Source of the DNA: Campylobacterales bacterium
GTDB taxonomy: Bacteria > Campylobacterota > Campylobacteria > Campylobacterales > Sulfurimonadaceae
Assembly (NCBI GenBank): GCA_026390115.1
Contig: JAPLGO010000034.1
Location: forward strand, 62,001-126,000
Direction of reading: 5' to 3'
DNA: 64,000 bases
Shown: positions 3,128 through 9,873 of the stretch, one piece after another
Layout: the number at the start of each line of letters is the position of its first letter
Position numbering within the stretch: position 1 is the stretch's first letter
Notes under the pieces: generated by a model
Databases searched by the model: none
What the model was told of the DNA's origin: nothing
The model's input: the letters and a program-made list of their open reading frames with translations, nothing else
Program-made: the position numbers and the translations under genes

Positions 3128-3143
3128 CTATCTAAGATTTTCG
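3128..3143. repeat. attL core: 16-bp direct repeat
   Basis: CTATCTAAGATTTTCG, identical to 9858-9873; the flanking bases differ on both sides, so the identity is exactly 16 bp. It lies 11 bases from the recombinase stop codon, the usual place for an attachment site. Confidence 0.9.
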
Positions 3144-3153
3144 GGCATACCTC

Positions 3154-3801
3154 TTACAAGCCTATTTTACGGACTTTATCATCTTCCCCTTGGTAAACTG
3201 TCACCGTATTGTCACCGTATAACGAAAAATCCTTCCCCAAATCAATCGATTCAGAACCCAGAACACTCGCATATTTATCGAGTGTTGTCTTTGCAGAAGA
3301 GTGACCTAACAGACCAGCTAATTCATTTATACTTACTAGTTTACTATTCAACATCAAAGTTGCGTAAGTATGTCGCGTGCAATATAATCTTAACTTTTTA
3401 ACTTTAGCATCGAGAACACATTGTCGCCAAAGATAATCAAGTTTTCCTGCATCATCTGTATTTCCAAAGATAAATATATTATTCGTTTGGATTTTCCTTA
3501 CTTCATCATATATAAAAGATGGATAAGGAACTCTTCTTTGTGCATTCCAAGTTTTACCACTTCCAACAATACCTTTGGTTCTACTTCTTTTGATGCTTAT
3601 ATAACCATCTTCAAAATCACCAAGTTGCAAACCTAAAATTTCACCTGTTCTCATTCCTGTATTAAAAGCAATTTGCAAATAGACTTTAAAAAATCCACTT
3701 GAAGCTTCAATAATCTTATTCACTTCGTCTTTAGTATAAAATCTAACAGCCTCTTTTACATCTTTGCTCAACCGAATATTTAGAGCTGGATTAAAGTTCA
3801 T
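3154..3801 (-). CDS. Tyrosine recombinase (integrase), C-terminal catalytic part
   Basis: A 215-aa catalytic half of a phage-type integrase. Catalytic positions visible are Arg51 (TGMRTGEI), Arg143-His144 in YCTRHTYA (Tyr replaces the first His of HxxR, as in many island integrases), His167 (LLGHSSAKTT) and the nucleophile Tyr177 (DKYASV). It would cut and rejoin DNA at the attachment core. The ATG at 3801 overlaps the N-terminal half and has no Shine-Dalgarno sequence. A single +1 shift at CTT-TAA at the end of the upstream frame joins the halves into one protein of normal integrase size (about 370 aa). Either recoding or a one-base insertion explains this. Confidence 0.85.
   Translation of the reverse strand: MNFNPALNIRLSKDVKEAVRFYTKDEVNKIIEASSGFFKVYLQIAFNTGMRTGEILGLQLGDFEDGYISIKRSRTKGIVGSGKTWNAQRRVPYPSFIYDEVRKIQTNNIFIFGNTDDAGKLDYLWRQCVLDAKVKKLRLYCTRHTYATLMLNSKLVSINELAGLLGHSSAKTTLDKYASVLGSESIDLGKDFSLYGDNTVTVYQGEDDKVRKIGL
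3199..3219. repeat. Candidate recombinase arm sites, left end
   Basis: Two tandem copies of TGTCACCGTA at 3199-3208 and 3210-3219, an 11-bp period, about 55 bp inside attL. A matching tandem pair occurs at 9767-9787 near the other end in the same orientation. These are inside the recombinase coding sequence (encoding part of NTVTV), so coding constraint could explain this pair, but not the non-coding pair. Confidence 0.55.
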
Positions 3802-4258
3802 TAGCTAATTCAAATATGCCATTTAAGCCACTTCTGTATGTAGCTTTAGAAGCAGATTTTATCTTTAGTGAGTTTAGATACTCTTTTATATCAAGTCGTG
3901 TAATAGTATCAATATTACGGTTTTTAAAGAACTCTATTACTCTCTTCCATTTTGGAAGTTTTGAGGAATAGCTTTTGATACCTTTTTTTTGTTCTAAAAA
4001 TATATTTCCATAATACTCAAAAGTTTGAGGCTTCTTTTTATATATTTCACCTGTTGCAATTTTCATATCAAGAGCTGGTATAATCTTGTCTTTCACTATT
4101 TTTATGTTTTGAGGTGTGTTTTTTAACTTAGTGGACTTTTGTTTTCTCACACCATCAACATAATAATTAAGCCATATTACAGAGCCTCTTAAAAAATATG
4201 TTGTCATTCCTTTGTTACCTTTTTTAGTGGTAACAGCCTTACTATGAAACAAAATCAT
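3791..4258 (-). CDS. Tyrosine recombinase (integrase), N-terminal DNA-binding part
   Basis: A 155-aa N-terminal half: an arm-binding-like region (residues about 15-75, with YYVDGVRKQKSTKLKNTPQN) and the SAM-like core-binding domain (about 80-155, ending RSGLNGIFELANEL). In intact integrases of this kind the text continues directly into NPALNI, which is found in the +1 frame from 3789 on. The stop is TAA directly after a CTT codon. The gene starts seven bases after the stop of the excisionase-like gene, so the two are probably co-transcribed. Confidence 0.82.
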   Translation of the reverse strand: MILFHSKAVTTKKGNKGMTTYFLRGSVIWLNYYVDGVRKQKSTKLKNTPQNIKIVKDKIIPALDMKIATGEIYKKKPQTFEYYGNIFLEQKKGIKSYSSKLPKWKRVIEFFKNRNIDTITRLDIKEYLNSLKIKSASKATYRSGLNGIFELANEL

Positions 4259-4264
4259 ACCTTT

Positions 4265-4474
4265 TTATATTAAAAATTTATCTAAGTCGATTTCGTCAGA
4301 AATAGAATTGATAGGCTTAATGCTATTATTGAACTCTTCAACATCAATATAAATTCTTTTGTATCCATTTATTTTATGAGCTGTAAGGTCTTTGTTTCTT
4401 ATCATACCTCTGATGTATGAAATATCAATACCCATATCTTCGGCGACTTTTTGAATAGTTTGAAATTTATTCAT
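4265..4474 (-). CDS. Excisionase-like helix-turn-helix protein
   Basis: A 69-aa protein of the small excisionase/MerR-like HTH type: IQKVAEDMGIDISYIRGMI forms the helix-turn-helix, followed by a wing-like YKRIYIDVEEF segment. Such proteins direct integrases towards excision or act as small repressors. GAGG precedes the ATG. Its position directly upstream of the recombinase supports an excisionase (Xis) role, which is inferred from size, fold and context only. Confidence 0.72.
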   Translation of the reverse strand: MNKFQTIQKVAEDMGIDISYIRGMIRNKDLTAHKINGYKRIYIDVEEFNNSIKPINSISDEIDLDKFLI

Positions 4475-4475
4475 T

Positions 4476-4880
4476 TTAAAATACCTCGCTTGCTTCGTTA
4501 ATATCTGTAAGTTTCAGCCTCTCAGCCACAATCAAACCTCTATGAATCATTTCATTGGTAGCGATTACATAGTGAGCAGGGTTCACCGTTGCAATATCTA
4601 TGTTCTCAAAATAATTGTTAAGCTGATAATTTTTCATTTGATACGGTTGCGTAGTGACTTTTTGCAATATATTTTGGAATGGGATAACCTCTTTGCCTTG
4701 CTCTAAGAGCTTTTGATTTTCATGATTGTGCTTTTTAACAGAAAAATTGTAAGTGATGTACTCTTCGCCATCAATTGAAACATTTATATAATGTGGAGTT
4801 TCATCTTTGTAGATAGACTCAAATCCGCTATCTAACTGTACTTTGCCATCTTCGCCAACTCTGTGTAATTTGATTACAAA
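4476..4880 (-). pseudogene. C-terminal fragment of a frameshifted island gene
   Basis: The frame is open from 4880 down to the stop at 4476 (about 134 codons) but has no ATG at its head; upstream it is closed by TAA at 4881-4883. The translation looks like genuine protein (RVGEDGKVQLDSGFESIYKD, then HYINVSIDGEEYITYNFSVK and IPFQN). The only in-frame start, a TTG at 4667, would remove over half of it. It lies directly downstream of the 118-aa frame 4828-5184, and a one-base shift between 4830 and 4880 joins the two into a protein of about 235 aa. I do not recognise the family. It ends one base before the excisionase-like gene. Confidence 0.6.
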
Positions 4881-5184
4881 TTATCCTATTCTGCGTTATA
4901 AATGCATCAAAAAAACCATCTCCAGGAAATCTATCTCTAGTCACTATAAACATTGCATAATACGGTAATATATCATTGTACATGACACCATTTATTGTAA
5001 CACCGAATCTTGTATCAGAAGTAATGAATCTATCTACATCTAGTACCATATTAAAATCTGGATATTTGAATTCTGATATGAACTCTCCCATTACAATGGT
5101 AGTTCCATTGGTTACATAATTTTTTCCATTTGTAATTAAGTACTCCGCCATTTGACATTTATTAAAATTCTTATTATAAGCCAT
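4828..5184 (-). CDS. N-terminal part of a frameshifted island gene
   Basis: A 118-aa reading frame starting MAYNKNFNKCQMAEYLI. The last residues (CNQITQSWRRWQSTVR) look like out-of-frame translation, while the overlapping minus-strand frame below 4880 carries credible sequence, so a one-base insertion near 4880 has probably split the gene. Family unknown; it might belong to the element's maintenance functions given its place next to the excisionase-like gene. A promoter with a TATAAT box lies in the 111-bp repeat 74 bp upstream of its start. Confidence 0.6.
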   Translation of the reverse strand: MAYNKNFNKCQMAEYLITNGKNYVTNGTTIVMGEFISEFKYPDFNMVLDVDRFITSDTRFGVTINGVMYNDILPYYAMFIVTRDRFPGDGFFDAFITQNRIICNQITQSWRRWQSTVR

Positions 5185-5240
5185 AATTCACCTTTATTTT
5201 TTTAGTAAACTTTATCATCGATAATATATTCCTTCCTCTG

Positions 5241-5351
5241 ACTATTTATTAGTTCTCATTATAGTAAACTCAGACTTAATATAAAGAAACAAAGGAACAT
5301 ATAAAATGTTTCATTAAAAATGTAAATTTAATGCACTTCCTAACATATTAT
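5241..5351. repeat. Island direct repeat, copy 1 (111 bp)
   Basis: Aligns without gaps to 9390-9500 in the same orientation; by hand 97 of 111 positions match. It ends three bases before the ATPase stop codon on one side and lies upstream of the 118-aa gene on the other. It contains a minus-strand TATAAT at 5258-5263. Confidence 0.88.
5258..5263 (-). promoter_or_regulatory. Predicted -10 box for the 4828-5184 gene
   Basis: Minus-strand TATAAT in the context TTTACTATAATGA, within repeat copy 1. No consensus -35 is seen, which is usual for this phylum. Confidence 0.5.
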
Positions 5352-5354
5352 GGT

Positions 5355-7124
5355 TTAAAAGCATTGTTTAAATAATTTACCTTCACAAGACTCATCAGAT
5401 AATATTAAACATACTTCATCTTTAGTAAACTTGAAATCATCTTTTAAATCATAAGTTTCAGATTCTATAACAGTGAGAATATATTGTAAGTCAAAATGAT
5501 TTACAATATTTCTTATATGTTCTATATATTTTTCTTTTTTTCTTATATCTAAACTATCTAAGACACCATCATGATATACAAACCTATAAAATGATTTATC
5601 ATTATAATATTGAAGCAAAGATGTATCAAAAGCTGAACATAAAATCTTCTTGTATGTACTTCCTTTAGCTAAATCAGTGATTATTAATTCTTCTGTATTT
5701 TGATAATCTGCTTCAAAATCCACGTTGTTTTTTCCATTTATTTTTATAGATAATATTGCAGGAGTGTTTAATACACTCATTGTGAAATCATTAAAAAGTT
5801 TTCTTATATGCCTATGTTTTTGTTGTAATATTTCATGTTTAAGCTCAGTTACTTTTGCTTTGATATCATTATCTAAACCTTGAATTTGTGTTTGAATCTG
5901 ACTCATTTTATTAATATTTTTAAGCTTATCTTGAAGTATAAAAATATTAGCTTCTGTTCTTGCTAAATCTTTTTGATATTTTTTAAATTTATCATAAGTT
6001 GTTTTTTCTGTAATATCCATAAATAGAGAAGACTTTTCACTCTCTAATGACTTTAATAGTTTTTCGATACTTTCTGAGTCCTCTTTAGATTTTTTTAAAT
6101 TTTCTAATAAATATTGATTTCTTTCACTTGTAATTTGTTTGTTAAATATTATTACTTTTTCATATTCATTTAACAATTCATTTGGAAAAAATATTTTAAC
6201 CTCTTCATAAAGTTCTTTTATATCTTCTACATCAAATGAGTCTATATCCGTACTTATAGCTCTTTCTATCTTATCTATTTCATATTTTATAGAATAATGT
6301 TCAGTATTGGCATCTTTAATTTTACTTTCAATTTCAGTTACCAACTTTTCTTTTTCACTATTATCTTTTTCATAAAAATCAAATTTATCTATTTCATGAG
6401 ATATTGTGTCATATTCATTTTGTTTTATTTCAATTAAACCAACTACTTTATCTTCATCTTCACTTGTTATTCTATTTTCAATTTCCAATGTATTAAGTAT
6501 TTTTTTTTGTTCTTCAAAATTTTCTTCTAAAGTCAACTTATCATAGAGAAGTTTTCCATCAAATCCCAATAAATCGAATACCATTGGTTTCCAATCTTTA
6601 TGAATACCTTGAAATTTACTGAGTTTAAAGACATCTATATAATCATTTTGGTACCTAGTAAAATAGTTAATTACTTTTCTATAATTCCACTGAGGCAGAA
6701 CATCAAAGTTTATATATTCATTCAGTTTAATTTTTGCTTTTCCTATTGGTAAATCAATATAATCCCATTTATCTATTTCAATCTGGAAATTTTTAAGTTT
6801 AAATTCATTTAACTTAAATGAAATTTTTGTATTATTCTCAGTTGCTCTTTTGATAATCAAATATTTACCGTTATTTAATTTTAATTCTGCAAAGAAGATA
6901 TAGTCTTCAAATATTTTATTCTTTGTTAAGAAATATTTATCTTTTTTATCAATACTTTTTAGTAGTAAAAAATCAATCACCTCTAATAGTAACGATTTTC
7001 CAATATTATGATTATCCAAATCACTATTATCTCTATCGGATATTTTTCCTATAACTACATTTAAACCTTCGTTAAAAGATACATCGTGAAATGATTTATT
7101 TGCGTATATTTTAGATAACTTCAT
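5355..7124 (-). CDS. ABC-3C-type ATPase with coiled coil (DUF2326-like)
   Basis: A 589-aa SMC/RecN-like ATPase. The N-terminus has a strand-rich head and an unusual Walker A, HNIGKS (about 39-44), after GLNVVIGKISDRDN. The middle (about 200-430) is rich in Lys and Glu and reads as coiled coil. The C-terminus has a signature-like LAKGSTYKK and a Walker B/D-loop-like VYHDGVLDSLD (about 515-525). This layout matches DUF2326 proteins, which act as the ATPase of three-component ABC (ABC-3C) systems thought to be anti-phage modules. It starts inside the middle-component gene (14-nt overlap), so the operon is tightly coupled. Role in defence is inferred. Confidence 0.82.
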   Translation of the reverse strand: MKLSKIYANKSFHDVSFNEGLNVVIGKISDRDNSDLDNHNIGKSLLLEVIDFLLLKSIDKKDKYFLTKNKIFEDYIFFAELKLNNGKYLIIKRATENNTKISFKLNEFKLKNFQIEIDKWDYIDLPIGKAKIKLNEYINFDVLPQWNYRKVINYFTRYQNDYIDVFKLSKFQGIHKDWKPMVFDLLGFDGKLLYDKLTLEENFEEQKKILNTLEIENRITSEDEDKVVGLIEIKQNEYDTISHEIDKFDFYEKDNSEKEKLVTEIESKIKDANTEHYSIKYEIDKIERAISTDIDSFDVEDIKELYEEVKIFFPNELLNEYEKVIIFNKQITSERNQYLLENLKKSKEDSESIEKLLKSLESEKSSLFMDITEKTTYDKFKKYQKDLARTEANIFILQDKLKNINKMSQIQTQIQGLDNDIKAKVTELKHEILQQKHRHIRKLFNDFTMSVLNTPAILSIKINGKNNVDFEADYQNTEELIITDLAKGSTYKKILCSAFDTSLLQYYNDKSFYRFVYHDGVLDSLDIRKKEKYIEHIRNIVNHFDLQYILTVIESETYDLKDDFKFTKDEVCLILSDESCEGKLFKQCF

Positions 7125-7362
7125 TACTCAACCTTATAGAGTCTAATTCTTTAATATATTCTACTTTTTTATGAATATACAAAAATGATAAACTTAATAA
7201 AAAAACTTCTTCAACCTCTTTACCAATTTTGAGTTTTAAAAGTTCCAAAAGTTCACTATACTCAACGATAGCATTATCTTTTAAGATTTTCAAAATTGTT
7301 GCTGAAATATTTATGATTGAATATCGTAAATTTGTATGTTTAGATGGTTTTAAAAAACTCAT
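7111..7362 (-). CDS. ABC-3C middle component (MC6-like)
   Basis: An 83-aa protein between the nuclease-like and ATPase genes, overlapping the former by 4 nt and the latter by 14 nt. It begins PSKHTNLRYSIINISATILK and has a short winged-helix-like body. The pattern of a KH..L..S...... A.IL..L opening followed by a small HTH fits the ABC-3C middle component 6 family that accompanies DUF2326 ATPases. Middle components are thought to bridge ATPase and effector. The family call is from memory of the pattern plus operon position and should be checked by profile search. Confidence 0.7.
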   Translation of the reverse strand: MSFLKPSKHTNLRYSIINISATILKILKDNAIVEYSELLELLKLKIGKEVEEVFLLSLSFLYIHKKVEYIKELDSIRLSNEVI

Positions 7363-8282
7363 TCCATGACTCCTATATCACAATGAAAATACATATAATG
7401 TAGAAACACTCTTATAAGTCTTCTATCATTTTTGAGAACTAATTCATGCGCATTAAGCATATAATCATATAGATATTCTAATATTTCTTCAAAAGTATTA
7501 TATTCGTCTCTTTTAACAAGAATTTTAGACTGTATATCGCTAATTGTATTATCATATTGTTTTGCAAATTTTCTATTTTTAGGACTTTTAAAAAACTTTT
7601 CAATCTCATTAAACTCTTTAATAGACTTTTTAAAAGAATTATTAAAGTAAATTTCACTCATTTTGTTTAATTTGTTTTTTTCTTTTATTGTTATTTTATC
7701 ATTTTTTCTTTTTATCTCTTGTATTTCTTCTCCACTAAAGTCAATATTTGAAAAAGTAACTATTATCTCTTTTAAATCTTCTTCATAAAATTGCAATGGT
7801 AGAAGCAATCTGTTCAAATTATGTTTTTGAACTATAATTGGATAATCTTTAAGCCATTTTTGTATTCTCTCTTCACCTATAACCTGATTCTTTGCATTTA
7901 ACTTTCCACCAATTAAATCTTCAATTTTAGGATCTTGAATACCTGTTAATTTTCTATTTGTGAAAATTAAATAGTTATCTAATTTATCAGCTTCTTGTAG
8001 TTTTTTTATACTACTTATTTCATCATTTAAAATAGTTTTAAAATCATTATCTGAACAACTTGCATTTGCTTTAGTTGTATGTTTTGCCTGAATTATAAAT
8101 TTACCACTCCATGGACTAGCTGAACTAGGAAAATTATTTGCGGTACCTGAAAATTTTGCATCTCTTCCACCGTCTGTTCCATCAGAAAATATAATTATCC
8201 CTGTTCCCAACACTTCTTCACAGATAGAAGTGACAATACTCTCAAATTCTTGCCATGCTAACTCATATAACGGATAGTTCAT
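7359..8282 (-). CDS. ABC-3C effector: PD-(D/E)xK nuclease-like protein
   Basis: A 307-aa protein. Residues about 5-130 look like a restriction-endonuclease (Mrr-like) fold: Glu14 in FESIV, Asp41 in GTDGGRDAKF and Gln65-x-Lys67 in FIIQAKHT form a D...QxK active site, the Mrr variant of PD-(D/E)xK. The rest (about 150-307) is helical and charged and would be the C-terminal domain that links ABC-3C effectors to their ATPase. It is the first gene of the operon; TATAAT-like sequence and AAGGAA lie upstream. The predicted action is DNA cleavage on triggering. An orphan Type IV enzyme is the alternative, disfavoured by the two tightly coupled partner genes. Confidence 0.75.
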   Translation of the reverse strand: MNYPLYELAWQEFESIVTSICEEVLGTGIIIFSDGTDGGRDAKFSGTANNFPSSASPWSGKFIIQAKHTTKANASCSDNDFKTILNDEISSIKKLQEADKLDNYLIFTNRKLTGIQDPKIEDLIGGKLNAKNQVIGEERIQKWLKDYPIIVQKHNLNRLLLPLQFYEEDLKEIIVTFSNIDFSGEEIQEIKRKNDKITIKEKNKLNKMSEIYFNNSFKKSIKEFNEIEKFFKSPKNRKFAKQYDNTISDIQSKILVKRDEYNTFEEILEYLYDYMLNAHELVLKNDRRLIRVFLHYMYFHCDIGVME

Positions 8283-8358
8283 AATTGTTTATCATTCCTT
8301 CTTCTATATAATATTATATCTAAAGATTCACTTCATATTGATTTTGTTCATACAACGT

Positions 8359-8374
8359 TTATCGTGAGCGATAA
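8359..8374. promoter_or_regulatory. Palindrome upstream of the ABC-3C operon
   Basis: TTATCG-TGAG-CGATAA, a perfect inverted repeat with 6-bp arms, 77 bp upstream of the nuclease-like gene start in a 186-base gap. It could be a repressor operator; no partner regulator is identified. Confidence 0.4.
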
Positions 8375-8468
8375 TTTTCCGCTTGAGGTAAATTATTGCG
8401 TTCCACATTTTGTTAGATTTTTAGTATATTTGTATCAAACTCAAATCTTAAGTTTGTTTCTAAATCTG

Positions 8469-9374
8469 CTAAAAATCATCCCAATCAGATTTATGAACTC
8501 TTGCTTTTGCATATGTGCTTGCCATTTTCAAAAAAGCTGTCGCAACTGTATCTAAGTCTAAAACAAACTGTTTTAATTCATCACTTCTATCATCTCCATA
8601 TGATAAAAATACAGAATCTCTATAGTTAGCTTTTCCTCTATATCTAAATGCCTGTACTAAAAAATTCACGATACCTTTTTCAAGTTTTCCATCTCGTAAT
8701 TCTCTTGCGACTTTAGTTCTAAAGTTATCTACATCAAGGGCTTTAAACTCCCGACTTCCTTTTATATTTTCTTCTGTTTCCCATTTTTTATAACCTGCTG
8801 TCCCTTGTAAATATGAAAAAAGTGCACCGAAAGCTTCTTCTTCATTTTTAGGGTAGTTATTTAAATCAAAACTATTACCATTTCTCATTGTTTGAATTGC
8901 GCTTTTAAAGTCTTTTTCAACTAATGTTGATAATGATAAATCAAATGGTGACATAGTTAATTTTTCTACGATATCTTTTTGCCAAACTTTTGCAGTACCA
9001 GCATGTGTTTCTTGCATGTTTCCAGATTGTGCTCCTATCATTGCACTACTTGCATAATATATAGAGTAGTACCAAGATATTATCTGTGTCCTAGCAACAG
9101 AATAAGGATTTTCTATTTTAGTATTGATTATCTTTAATGAATGTAAATTATGTATTGACATTAAAATATTTCCGAAAACTATTAAGTCTGCTTCATTGTT
9201 TCTATTTCGTCTTTGTACACCTGAGTAAAAAGCCTTTATTTTTTCATTTGTAAAAACTTCTTCTTCACATAATATAGCTAAGCCTCTCATCCAATTAACC
9301 GTACCTTGAAAAGCAAATCTTAATGTAGGTTGGTCTGTTGTTTCGTATAGTTTTTGTAAATACCAATTGTTCAT
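8469..9374 (-). CDS. Unknown 301-aa protein in the island cargo
   Basis: A mostly helical protein of unknown family. The stretch ARTQIISWYYSIYYASSAMI (about 94-113) resembles the helix that opens many HEPN-type domains, and a later RYRGKANYRDSVFLSYG (about 243-259) resembles the second conserved helix of such folds; the Rx4-6H RNase motif is not evident, so this is a weak inference. It lies upstream of the ABC-3C operon on the same strand, inside the same pair of 111-bp repeats, and has its own promoter-like TATAAT 33 bp before its start. A helper or separate defence gene is plausible. Confidence 0.7.
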   Translation of the reverse strand: MNNWYLQKLYETTDQPTLRFAFQGTVNWMRGLAILCEEEVFTNEKIKAFYSGVQRRNRNNEADLIVFGNILMSIHNLHSLKIINTKIENPYSVARTQIISWYYSIYYASSAMIGAQSGNMQETHAGTAKVWQKDIVEKLTMSPFDLSLSTLVEKDFKSAIQTMRNGNSFDLNNYPKNEEEAFGALFSYLQGTAGYKKWETEENIKGSREFKALDVDNFRTKVARELRDGKLEKGIVNFLVQAFRYRGKANYRDSVFLSYGDDRSDELKQFVLDLDTVATAFLKMASTYAKARVHKSDWDDF

Positions 9375-9389
9375 GCTCTTCCTAATCTA

Positions 9390-9500
9390 ACTATTTATTA
9401 ATTTCCATTATAGTAAACTTAAACTTAATATAAAGAAATAAAGGAACACATAAAATGTTTCATTATAAATACAAATTTAATGAATTTTCTAATATATTAT
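9390..9500. repeat. Island direct repeat, copy 2 (111 bp)
   Basis: Same-orientation, ungapped partner of 5241-5351. It ends 16 bases before the start of the 301-aa gene. The two copies bracket exactly that gene plus the ABC-3C operon (5352-9389). Confidence 0.88.
9407..9412 (-). promoter_or_regulatory. Predicted -10 box for the 301-aa gene
   Basis: Minus-strand TATAAT in TTTACTATAATGG, 33 bp upstream of the ATG at 9374 and identical in position within the repeat to the box at 5258. Confidence 0.5.
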
Positions 9501-9766
9501 CATAATCTTAATCTTTCGTATTATTATCCTTAAAAACAAAATGCCCTTTTATCACAGAAATAGCTATTATTTTAAGAAAATGTCTCTTAAGTAAAAAATA
9601 TGAATTATATTAGTGATTAAGAAAAATTTTATTGTATATGAGGTGCTAACTCCTTGTTCTATTGCAAATATATTGCAAAACTTTAAGCCTAAATCAACCA
9701 CGCTTTAAATATGCTCATATCAATATTTATACTTTAAAAAAGGAAAGGGGAATTGAGAGGAAAAAG

Positions 9767-9787
9767 TGTAACCGTAGTGTCACAGTA
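9767..9787. repeat. Candidate recombinase arm sites, right end
   Basis: TGTAACCGTA at 9767-9776 and TGTCACAGTA at 9778-9787: the same motif, orientation and 11-bp period as the pair at 3199-3219, here in non-coding DNA about 70 bp inside attR. Confidence 0.55.
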
Positions 9788-9815
9788 AAACAGATATATT
9801 CATAGTAAAGCTGTT

Positions 9816-9849
9816 GCAAAAAGCCCATAAAGCCCCAATTTAGGGGCTT
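9816..9849 (-). terminator. Island-encoded terminator downstream of rpsR
   Basis: On the minus strand AAGCCCC-TAAATT-GGGGCTT, then TATGGGCTTTTT. It sits just inside attR and replaces the native terminator, which insertion moved 6.7 kb away. Confidence 0.82.
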
Positions 9850-9857
9850 AAATTAAT

Positions 9858-9873
9858 CTATCTAAGATTTTCG
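9858..9873. repeat. attR core: 16-bp direct repeat in rpsR
   Basis: Identical to 3128-3143. Read on the minus strand it spans the last four rpsR codons (E-N-L-R) and the TAG stop, so insertion regenerates the gene end. Confidence 0.9.

What the first reader, a model, noticed from the sequence alone, without database searches (positions are those of the whole stretch)
8469..9374. Unknown 301-aa gene travelling with the ABC-3C operon
It has its own promoter from the repeat, a helical HEPN-like look but no clear RNase motif, and lies in the same bracketed cargo. It may be a fourth component, a regulator or an independent defence gene. Unrecognised and therefore a good novelty candidate.
Basis: inference. 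Interest (0 to 1): 0.7.

Follow-up and report, generated by a model that had tools for sequence, protein, structure and literature searches.

The report
Integron cassette carrying an unclassified HEPN-fold gene
The gene belongs to a widespread, unannotated bacterial family of HEPN-fold proteins (a fold often used by RNA-cutting defence toxins); here it is a self-contained integron gene cassette that merely sits beside the ABC-3C defence operon rather than being part of it.

Summary
The ORF is real. Pfam, NCBIfam, PADLOC, PHROGs and PDB sequence searches do not recognise it, but tblastn and genome scans find about 100 homologues in many phyla. AlphaFold2 (pLDDT 92) gives an all-helical protein whose residues 60-293 match HEPN protein AF_0298 (2hsb; Z 11.0, 124 of 126 residues). 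The canonical RNase motif Rx4-6H is absent. His124 and the block R244-Y-R-G-K-A-N-Y-R252 are invariant or nearly so, a layout the HEPN literature describes as a possible alternative active site. A roughly 100-residue insert splits the fold.

The gene is not a fourth ABC-3C component: only 1 of about 90 homologue loci has an ABC-3C-type ATPase nearby. It is a complete integron cassette. The bracketing 115-bp repeats are attI/Pc sites (in relatives they lie beside integron-integrase genes); the gene follows an attI core and ends in an attC site. Gammaproteobacterial homologues are often cassettes too. Homologues sit beside type II R-M, TIR/Argonaute, Gabija-like and HerA genes.

Best explanation: a stand-alone HEPN-type anti-phage or toxin effector moved as a cassette. 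Fold and cassette status are well supported; function is inferred. The window copy has lost about 20 C-terminal residues to a frameshift.

The parts
8469..9374 (-). HEPN-fold gene (301 aa; relatives about 320 aa)
8413..8468 (-). Remainder of the ancestral coding region, readable in the neighbouring frame and ending at a stop that overlaps the attC R'' box; lost to the window protein by a frameshift
   Evidence: one search compared with the C-termini
9386..9500 (-). attI/Pc copy 1 (promoter, then core G|TTAGAT at 9391-9385), directly upstream of the HEPN gene
8350..8418 (-). attC site of the HEPN cassette: R'' ATCTAAC 8418-8412, next core GTTGTAT 8356-8350
7359..8282 (-). ABC-3C effector: Mrr-like nuclease domain (sub-threshold) and CTD12
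7111..7362 (-). ABC-3C middle component (MC6/MC8)
5355..7124 (-). ABC-3C ATPase (DUF2326; PADLOC PDC-M68B)
5237..5351 (-). attI/Pc copy 2, right after the ABC ATPase gene
4828..5184 (-). ORF of 118 aa behind attI copy 2, running into the replication-protein remnant (similarity to relative G216 breaks at 4858)
4265..4474 (-). Excisionase-like 69-aa ORF
   Evidence: sequence; intact homologue in relative G216
3154..4258 (-). Tyrosine recombinase of the carrier element, split by a frameshift (ORFs 3154-3801 and 3791-4258); intact in relative G216
3128..3143 (.). attL of the carrier element: 16-bp repeat of the rpsR 3' end
9858..9873 (.). attR of the carrier element: the 16 bp at the 3' end of rpsR

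Best explanation
The gene encodes a stand-alone effector of an unclassified HEPN family, most likely an RNA-cutting or RNA/nucleotide-acting toxin used in anti-phage (abortive-infection type) defence, and it is moved between genomes as an integron gene cassette. Shown: a HEPN fold (high-confidence model and structure match), lack of the canonical Rx4-6H, an invariant His124 and an invariant R/K/N/R block, cassette architecture (attI/Pc - gene - attC), independence from ABC-3C. Inferred: that H124 (between HEPN helices 2 and 3) and the R244-R252 block (helix 3) form an alternative active site, probably at a homodimer interface as in other HEPN proteins; that the insert and the N-terminal extension hold the switch or sensor that keeps the protein silent until infection; and that the outcome is growth arrest or death of the infected cell. 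In the window the Pc promoter in the attI repeat would drive the gene, but the copy has lost about 20 C-terminal residues, so its own activity is uncertain.
For: AlphaFold2 pLDDT 92, pTM 0.90. Best structure match 2hsb (HEPN AF_0298), Z 11.0 over 124 of 126 residues, next row Z 5.9, Csm6 HEPN also listed at Z 5.3. Weak PF05168 hits for 6 of 56 members and for spliced cores. H124 and R244, R246, K248, N250, R252 invariant in 56 sequences; PMC3710099 describes the same pattern (motif His lost, basic residue kept, second His in the helix 2-3 insert) for AF0298 and AbiV, and AbiV is an abortive-infection protein. Cassette. Defence context: type II R-M in E. coli prophages, TIR/Argonaute pair, GajA-like, HerA, PDC-S06, PDC-S39, 340 PADLOC models among near neighbours against 116 among distant ones. 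Integron cassettes are reported as libraries of anti-phage genes (PMC12409362).
Against: No functional data. Foldseek E-value is not significant (0.47) and Z up to about 13 can occur by chance for helical bundles (note). PF05168 scores are below the curated cut-off. The PADLOC comparison counts models, not proteins. Some homologues lie in ordinary contexts (e.g. Pantoea plasmid beside metabolic genes). The window copy is truncated.
Confidence: 0.6

Rival explanations
1. A catalytically inactive HEPN protein that only binds RNA, a nucleotide or a partner protein, acting as a sensor or inhibitor rather than a nuclease (as suggested for HEPN domains without catalytic residues).
For: Canonical Rx4-6H absent; many HEPN domains without it are thought to be non-catalytic (PMC3710099).
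Against: Strict conservation of H124 and of five charged or polar residues in RYRGKANYR looks more like an active site than a loose binding surface. The gene is mostly solitary, with no recurrent partner.
Confidence: 0.2
2. A toxin that stabilises cassette arrays or plasmids (addiction), with no role against phages.
For: Toxin-antitoxin genes are common in integron arrays and on plasmids (general knowledge); PMC3710099 proposes that integron HEPN proteins are dormancy-inducing RNases.
Against: No antitoxin-like partner recurs next to the family; recurrent neighbours are shared only among close relatives. The window cassette holds one gene.
Confidence: 0.12
3. A fourth component or regulator of the neighbouring ABC-3C system.
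For: Adjacency and same strand in the window, under the same Pc promoter.
Against: Separate cassette with its own attC. Only L071 among the homologue loci has an ABC-3C-type ATPase within the fetched flanks. Other members of the taxonomic family almost never carry the gene.
Confidence: 0.03

Closest known systems
AF_0298-type HEPN-T (PF05168; PDB 2hsb)
   Same: Four-helix HEPN core (Z 11.0); motif His absent, basic residue kept, a second conserved His in the helix 2-3 region.
   Different: About 100-residue insert, N-terminal extension of about 59 residues and C-terminal tail; R-x5-N instead of the Asp variant; PF05168 score below cut-off; no nucleotidyltransferase partner seen.
AbiV abortive-infection HEPN
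   Same: Lacks the motif His and has an alternative conserved His (PMC3710099).
   Different: Not retrieved by any search here; no sequence match found.
Integron cassette HEPN (PDB 3jrt)
   Same: HEPN protein carried on integron cassettes.
   Different: That family keeps Rx4-6H (PMC3710099 Table 1); the window family does not, and no sequence match was found.
Stand-alone anti-phage HEPN systems such as Tha (PMC11087260)
   Same: Prophage-borne HEPN defence protein as a working model.
   Different: No sequence match; trigger and activity of the window family are unknown.
ABC-3C / Lamassu-like systems
   Same: Genomic neighbour in the window.
   Different: Not a component: separate cassette and no co-occurrence.
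Delta-attI-type unusual cassettes (PMC12901181)
   Same: Cargo between two attI-derived sites, the second in place of an attC.
   Different: Here both copies are about 115 bp and carry promoters, in a genome without an intact intI; the described ones are class 1/2 mobile integrons with mostly short attI remnants.

Membership tests
HEPN superfamily | Four-helix HEPN fold | tested here: met
   2hsb Z 11.0, 124/126 residues, rmsd 2.8, next row Z 5.9; Foldseek probability 0.99 but E 0.47; predicted model, not a solved structure
HEPN superfamily | Rx4-6H motif | tested here: not met
   No such motif conserved in 56 sequences; the literature documents families without it
AF0298/AbiV-like HEPN variant | Second conserved His N-terminal to the motif, in the helix 2-3 region, with basic residue kept | tested here: met
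   H124 and R244/R246 invariant; spatial proximity not measured
Pfam PF05168 (HEPN) | Score over the curated cut-off (22 bits) | tested here: not met
   Best about 18.5 bits on a spliced core; 6 of 56 members hit weakly
Integron cassette HEPN (3jrt family) | Rx4-6H conserved | tested here: not met
   against Table 1 of PMC3710099
ABC-3C component | Co-occurs with ABC-3C genes across genomes | tested here: not met
   1 of about 90 loci
Integron gene cassette | Insertion at an attI or attC core (G|TTRRRY) | tested here: met
   Core GTTAGAT at 9391-9385 at the end of an attI-like repeat
Integron gene cassette | attC site behind the gene, R'' complementary to the cassette's own core | tested here: met
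   ATCTAAC 8418-8412, hairpin -8.1 against -3.9 +/- 1.7 kcal/mol, 7 of 500 shuffles
Complete integron | Integron integrase gene in cis | tested here: not met
   No TIGR02249 match in the genome at E <= 1e-30, while 79 of 228 related genomes have one
Integron gene cassette | Excision and integration by an integron integrase | not testable with these tools
   Needs a bench assay
Anti-phage defence effector | Protects cells against phages | not testable with these tools
   Context only
Anti-phage defence effector | Match to a known defence family (PADLOC) | tested here: not met
   No PADLOC hit for the window protein

The most novel reading that the evidence does not exclude
The family is an uncharacterised class of stand-alone anti-phage HEPN enzymes with a non-canonical active site (H124 plus the RYRGKANYR helix) and an insert that acts as infection sensor, spread across many phyla in several vehicles: integron cassettes, prophage and phage-plasmid cargo, and a short transposase-less unit in Enterobacterales.
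Probability: 0.35. Interest if true: 0.75.

Novelty: new variant of a known kind. Interest (0 to 1): 0.52.

Why it matters
It turns an unknown gene beside a defence operon into a testable, widespread protein family with a predicted fold and a short list of candidate active-site residues. It extends the HEPN proteins that lack Rx4-6H, for which it is open whether an alternative active site works. It also shows that ABC-3C and the HEPN gene here are integron cargo under an attI/Pc site on a decayed integrative element, so their adjacency is no evidence for a joint system: a caution for guilt-by-association calls.

Tried and rejected
Direct family searches of the window protein (Pfam, PADLOC, NCBIfam, PHROGs, PDB) gave nothing usable. 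Single-sequence scans of genome and viral contigs found no relatives; alignment-based scans did. No match in phage records. Two apparent relatives in the same taxonomic family: G113 looks spurious (25% identity inside a 1219-aa frame); G030 is a piece at a contig end. Profile searches of PDB with the full family and with the spliced core gave nothing and two SMN chance hits. Foldseek against viral models: nothing credible. The repeat as a structured RNA: no Rfam match. A strict attC pattern missed the window site because its R' half comes from the next cassette; a test with the cassette's own core found it. Fourth-component and regulator readings rejected for lack of co-occurrence. The idea that lon was displaced by the island: rejected, relatives have an OmpA-like gene there. 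Accession search of papers: no hit.

Full report
OBSERVATION. The ORF 8469-9374 (minus, 301 aa) exists, is single-copy in its genome and has no match over the cut-offs of Pfam or NCBIfam, none in PADLOC or PHROGs, and none in PDB by sequence. The neighbours 7359-8282, 7111-7362 and 5355-7124 are an ABC-3C system: CTD12 effector with a weak Mrr-like nuclease N-terminus, MC6/MC8 middle component and DUF2326 ABC ATPase.

FAMILY. tblastn found homologues on plasmids of Klebsiella, Pantoea, Vibrio, Sulfitobacter, Bradyrhizobium and Sinorhizobium (54.6% identity over full length at best). Alignment-guided scans found 76 loci in genome contigs and 14 in viral contigs; record titles name Pseudomonadota, Bacteroidetes, Nitrospirota, Omnitrophota, Elusimicrobia, Verrucomicrobia, Chloroflexi, Cyanobacteria, Planctomycetota, Gemmatimonadetes and Armatimonadetes, several of them metagenome-assembled. 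Forty-two of 5,426 complete E. coli genomes carry a 99.7% copy of the Silvania gene. Most full-length members run about 20 residues beyond the window's stop. In the window those residues can still be read in the neighbouring frame and end at a stop overlapping the attC box, as in relatives, so the window copy is frameshifted at its end, or the assembly has an error there.

FOLD. AlphaFold2 on a 56-sequence alignment gave pLDDT 92, pTM 0.90, all helical. The best structure match is 2hsb, the HEPN protein AF_0298: Z 11.0, rmsd 2.8, 124 of 126 residues; the next row has Z 5.9, and Csm6 appears at Z 5.3. The tool warns that helical bundles can reach Z of about 13 by chance, and Foldseek's E-value is 0.47 although its probability is 0.99. 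The fold call therefore rests on four things together: the gap to the next row, coverage of nearly the whole domain, weak but specific PF05168 hits, and the shared motif pattern. HEPN helices 1-4 correspond to about residues 60-85, 94-117, 238-252 and 264-292 (my assignment); about 100 residues are inserted between helices 2 and 3.

ACTIVE SITE. R-x4-6-H is not conserved. H124 is the only invariant His; R244, R246, K248, N250, Y251, R252, Y102, Y103, W28 and Y259 are invariant. Anantharaman et al. 2013 (PMC3710099) describe AF0298 and AbiV as HEPN proteins that lost the motif His but keep the basic residue and have a second conserved His from the helix 2-3 insert, and suggest an alternative active site. 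The window family shows this pattern.

INTEGRON CASSETTE. The 115-bp direct repeats (5237-5351, 9386-9500) belong to a set of promoter-bearing sites found in 18 of 228 genomes of the taxonomic family. The aligned copies end in a conserved -10 region and AATAAATAGTT core, in the loci inspected mostly just before an accessory gene. In G088 and G152 a site lies about 170-225 bp from an integron integrase gene, in divergent orientation (coordinates), and several further intI loci have a homologous stretch at the same place. I therefore read the repeat as attI with the Pc promoter. In the window, the core G|TTAGAT (9391-9385) is followed after about 10 bp by the start codon. Downstream, ATCTAAC (8418-8412) is the exact reverse complement of that core; the site as it would be in the excised circle folds at -8.1 kcal/mol against -3.9 +/- 1.7 for shuffles (7 of 500 as low; the outer stem pairs by construction). 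The next core lies at 8356-8350, so the ABC-3C genes would form the following cassette, which runs into the second attI without an attC of its own. Among homologues, an upstream core together with an R'' box at the stop occurs in 8 of 85, against 1 of 968 other genes of the same loci; the Vibrio europaeus copy lies among four VCR-like attC sites. Alphaproteobacterial members mostly lack these signs, so cassette carriage is a property of one branch including the window.

CARRIER ELEMENT. Exact 16-bp repeats at 3128-3143 and 9858-9873 (the 3' end of rpsR) bound a 6.7-kb element with a frameshifted tyrosine recombinase and an excisionase-like ORF. Relative G216 has the same recombinase (97-99% identical) intact at the same site, followed by a Phage_GPA-type replication protein and different cargo; similarity to the window breaks at 4858 and resumes at 9754. 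The window element is thus a decayed integrative element whose body was replaced by integron cargo (inference from this comparison).

CONTEXT AND FUNCTION. Only L071 has an ABC-3C-type ATPase near a homologue. Genes next to homologues include a type II R-M system in the cargo slot of an E. coli lambdoid prophage, a TIR/Argonaute pair, a Gabija-like GajA, HerA, PDC-S06 and PDC-S39, and a Vibrio cassette array with Hhe a few genes away. Near neighbours hit 340 PADLOC models against 116 for length-matched genes more than 6 kb away in the same loci; this counts models, not proteins, and is only indicative. Integrons have been reported as libraries of anti-phage systems (PMC12409362). The most likely function is therefore a stand-alone HEPN-type anti-phage effector (about 60%); a binding-only role is the main rival.

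LIMITS. No functional data for any member were found in the sources searched. Neighbour genes were called with a simple ORF scorer.

Noticed in passing
L004, L005, L017, L019, L088, L102 (about -248 to +143 around the gene): In six unrelated enterobacterial contexts (Pantoea plasmid, Klebsiella plasmid, Silvania and Erwinia contigs, a viral contig, E. coli prophage) the gene sits in an almost identical 1.35-kb unit with sharp borders (TGTGCCAATTGC... to ...GCCCGCTTTTCGCTCA), imperfect terminal inverted repeats and no transposase: possibly a non-autonomous mobile unit that captured the cassette.
   Followed up: partly
window 5237-5351 and 9386-9500; G000:C24:55566-55646; L168-L185: Promoter-bearing attI-like sites, up to three per genome, occur in 18 of 228 related genomes, also away from any intI gene and upstream of orphan or defence-like genes such as a NERD-UvrD helicase.
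   Followed up: partly
window 3128-9873; L186; L187: A family of small integrative elements in this lineage carries a tyrosine recombinase, an excisionase-like ORF and a Phage_GPA/HUH-type replication protein; the copy in G216 sits at the same rpsR site with other cargo.
   Followed up: partly
L064/L067/L075, gene ending 24 bp upstream of the homologue (L064:8952-9956): In Brevundimonas-type loci an ORF with a weak Mrr-like nuclease match (PF04471, E 5e-4) directly precedes the HEPN homologue.
   Followed up: no
L010 (Klebsiella plasmid pJX9-2): The homologue is interrupted by an IS5-family element (ISKpn26) in some Klebsiella plasmids.
   Followed up: no
L180 and L183: attI-like copies are followed by strong GC-rich hairpins (GTTGTACGTTC...GAACGTACAAC and similar), probably attC sites of cassettes in those genomes.
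   Followed up: no
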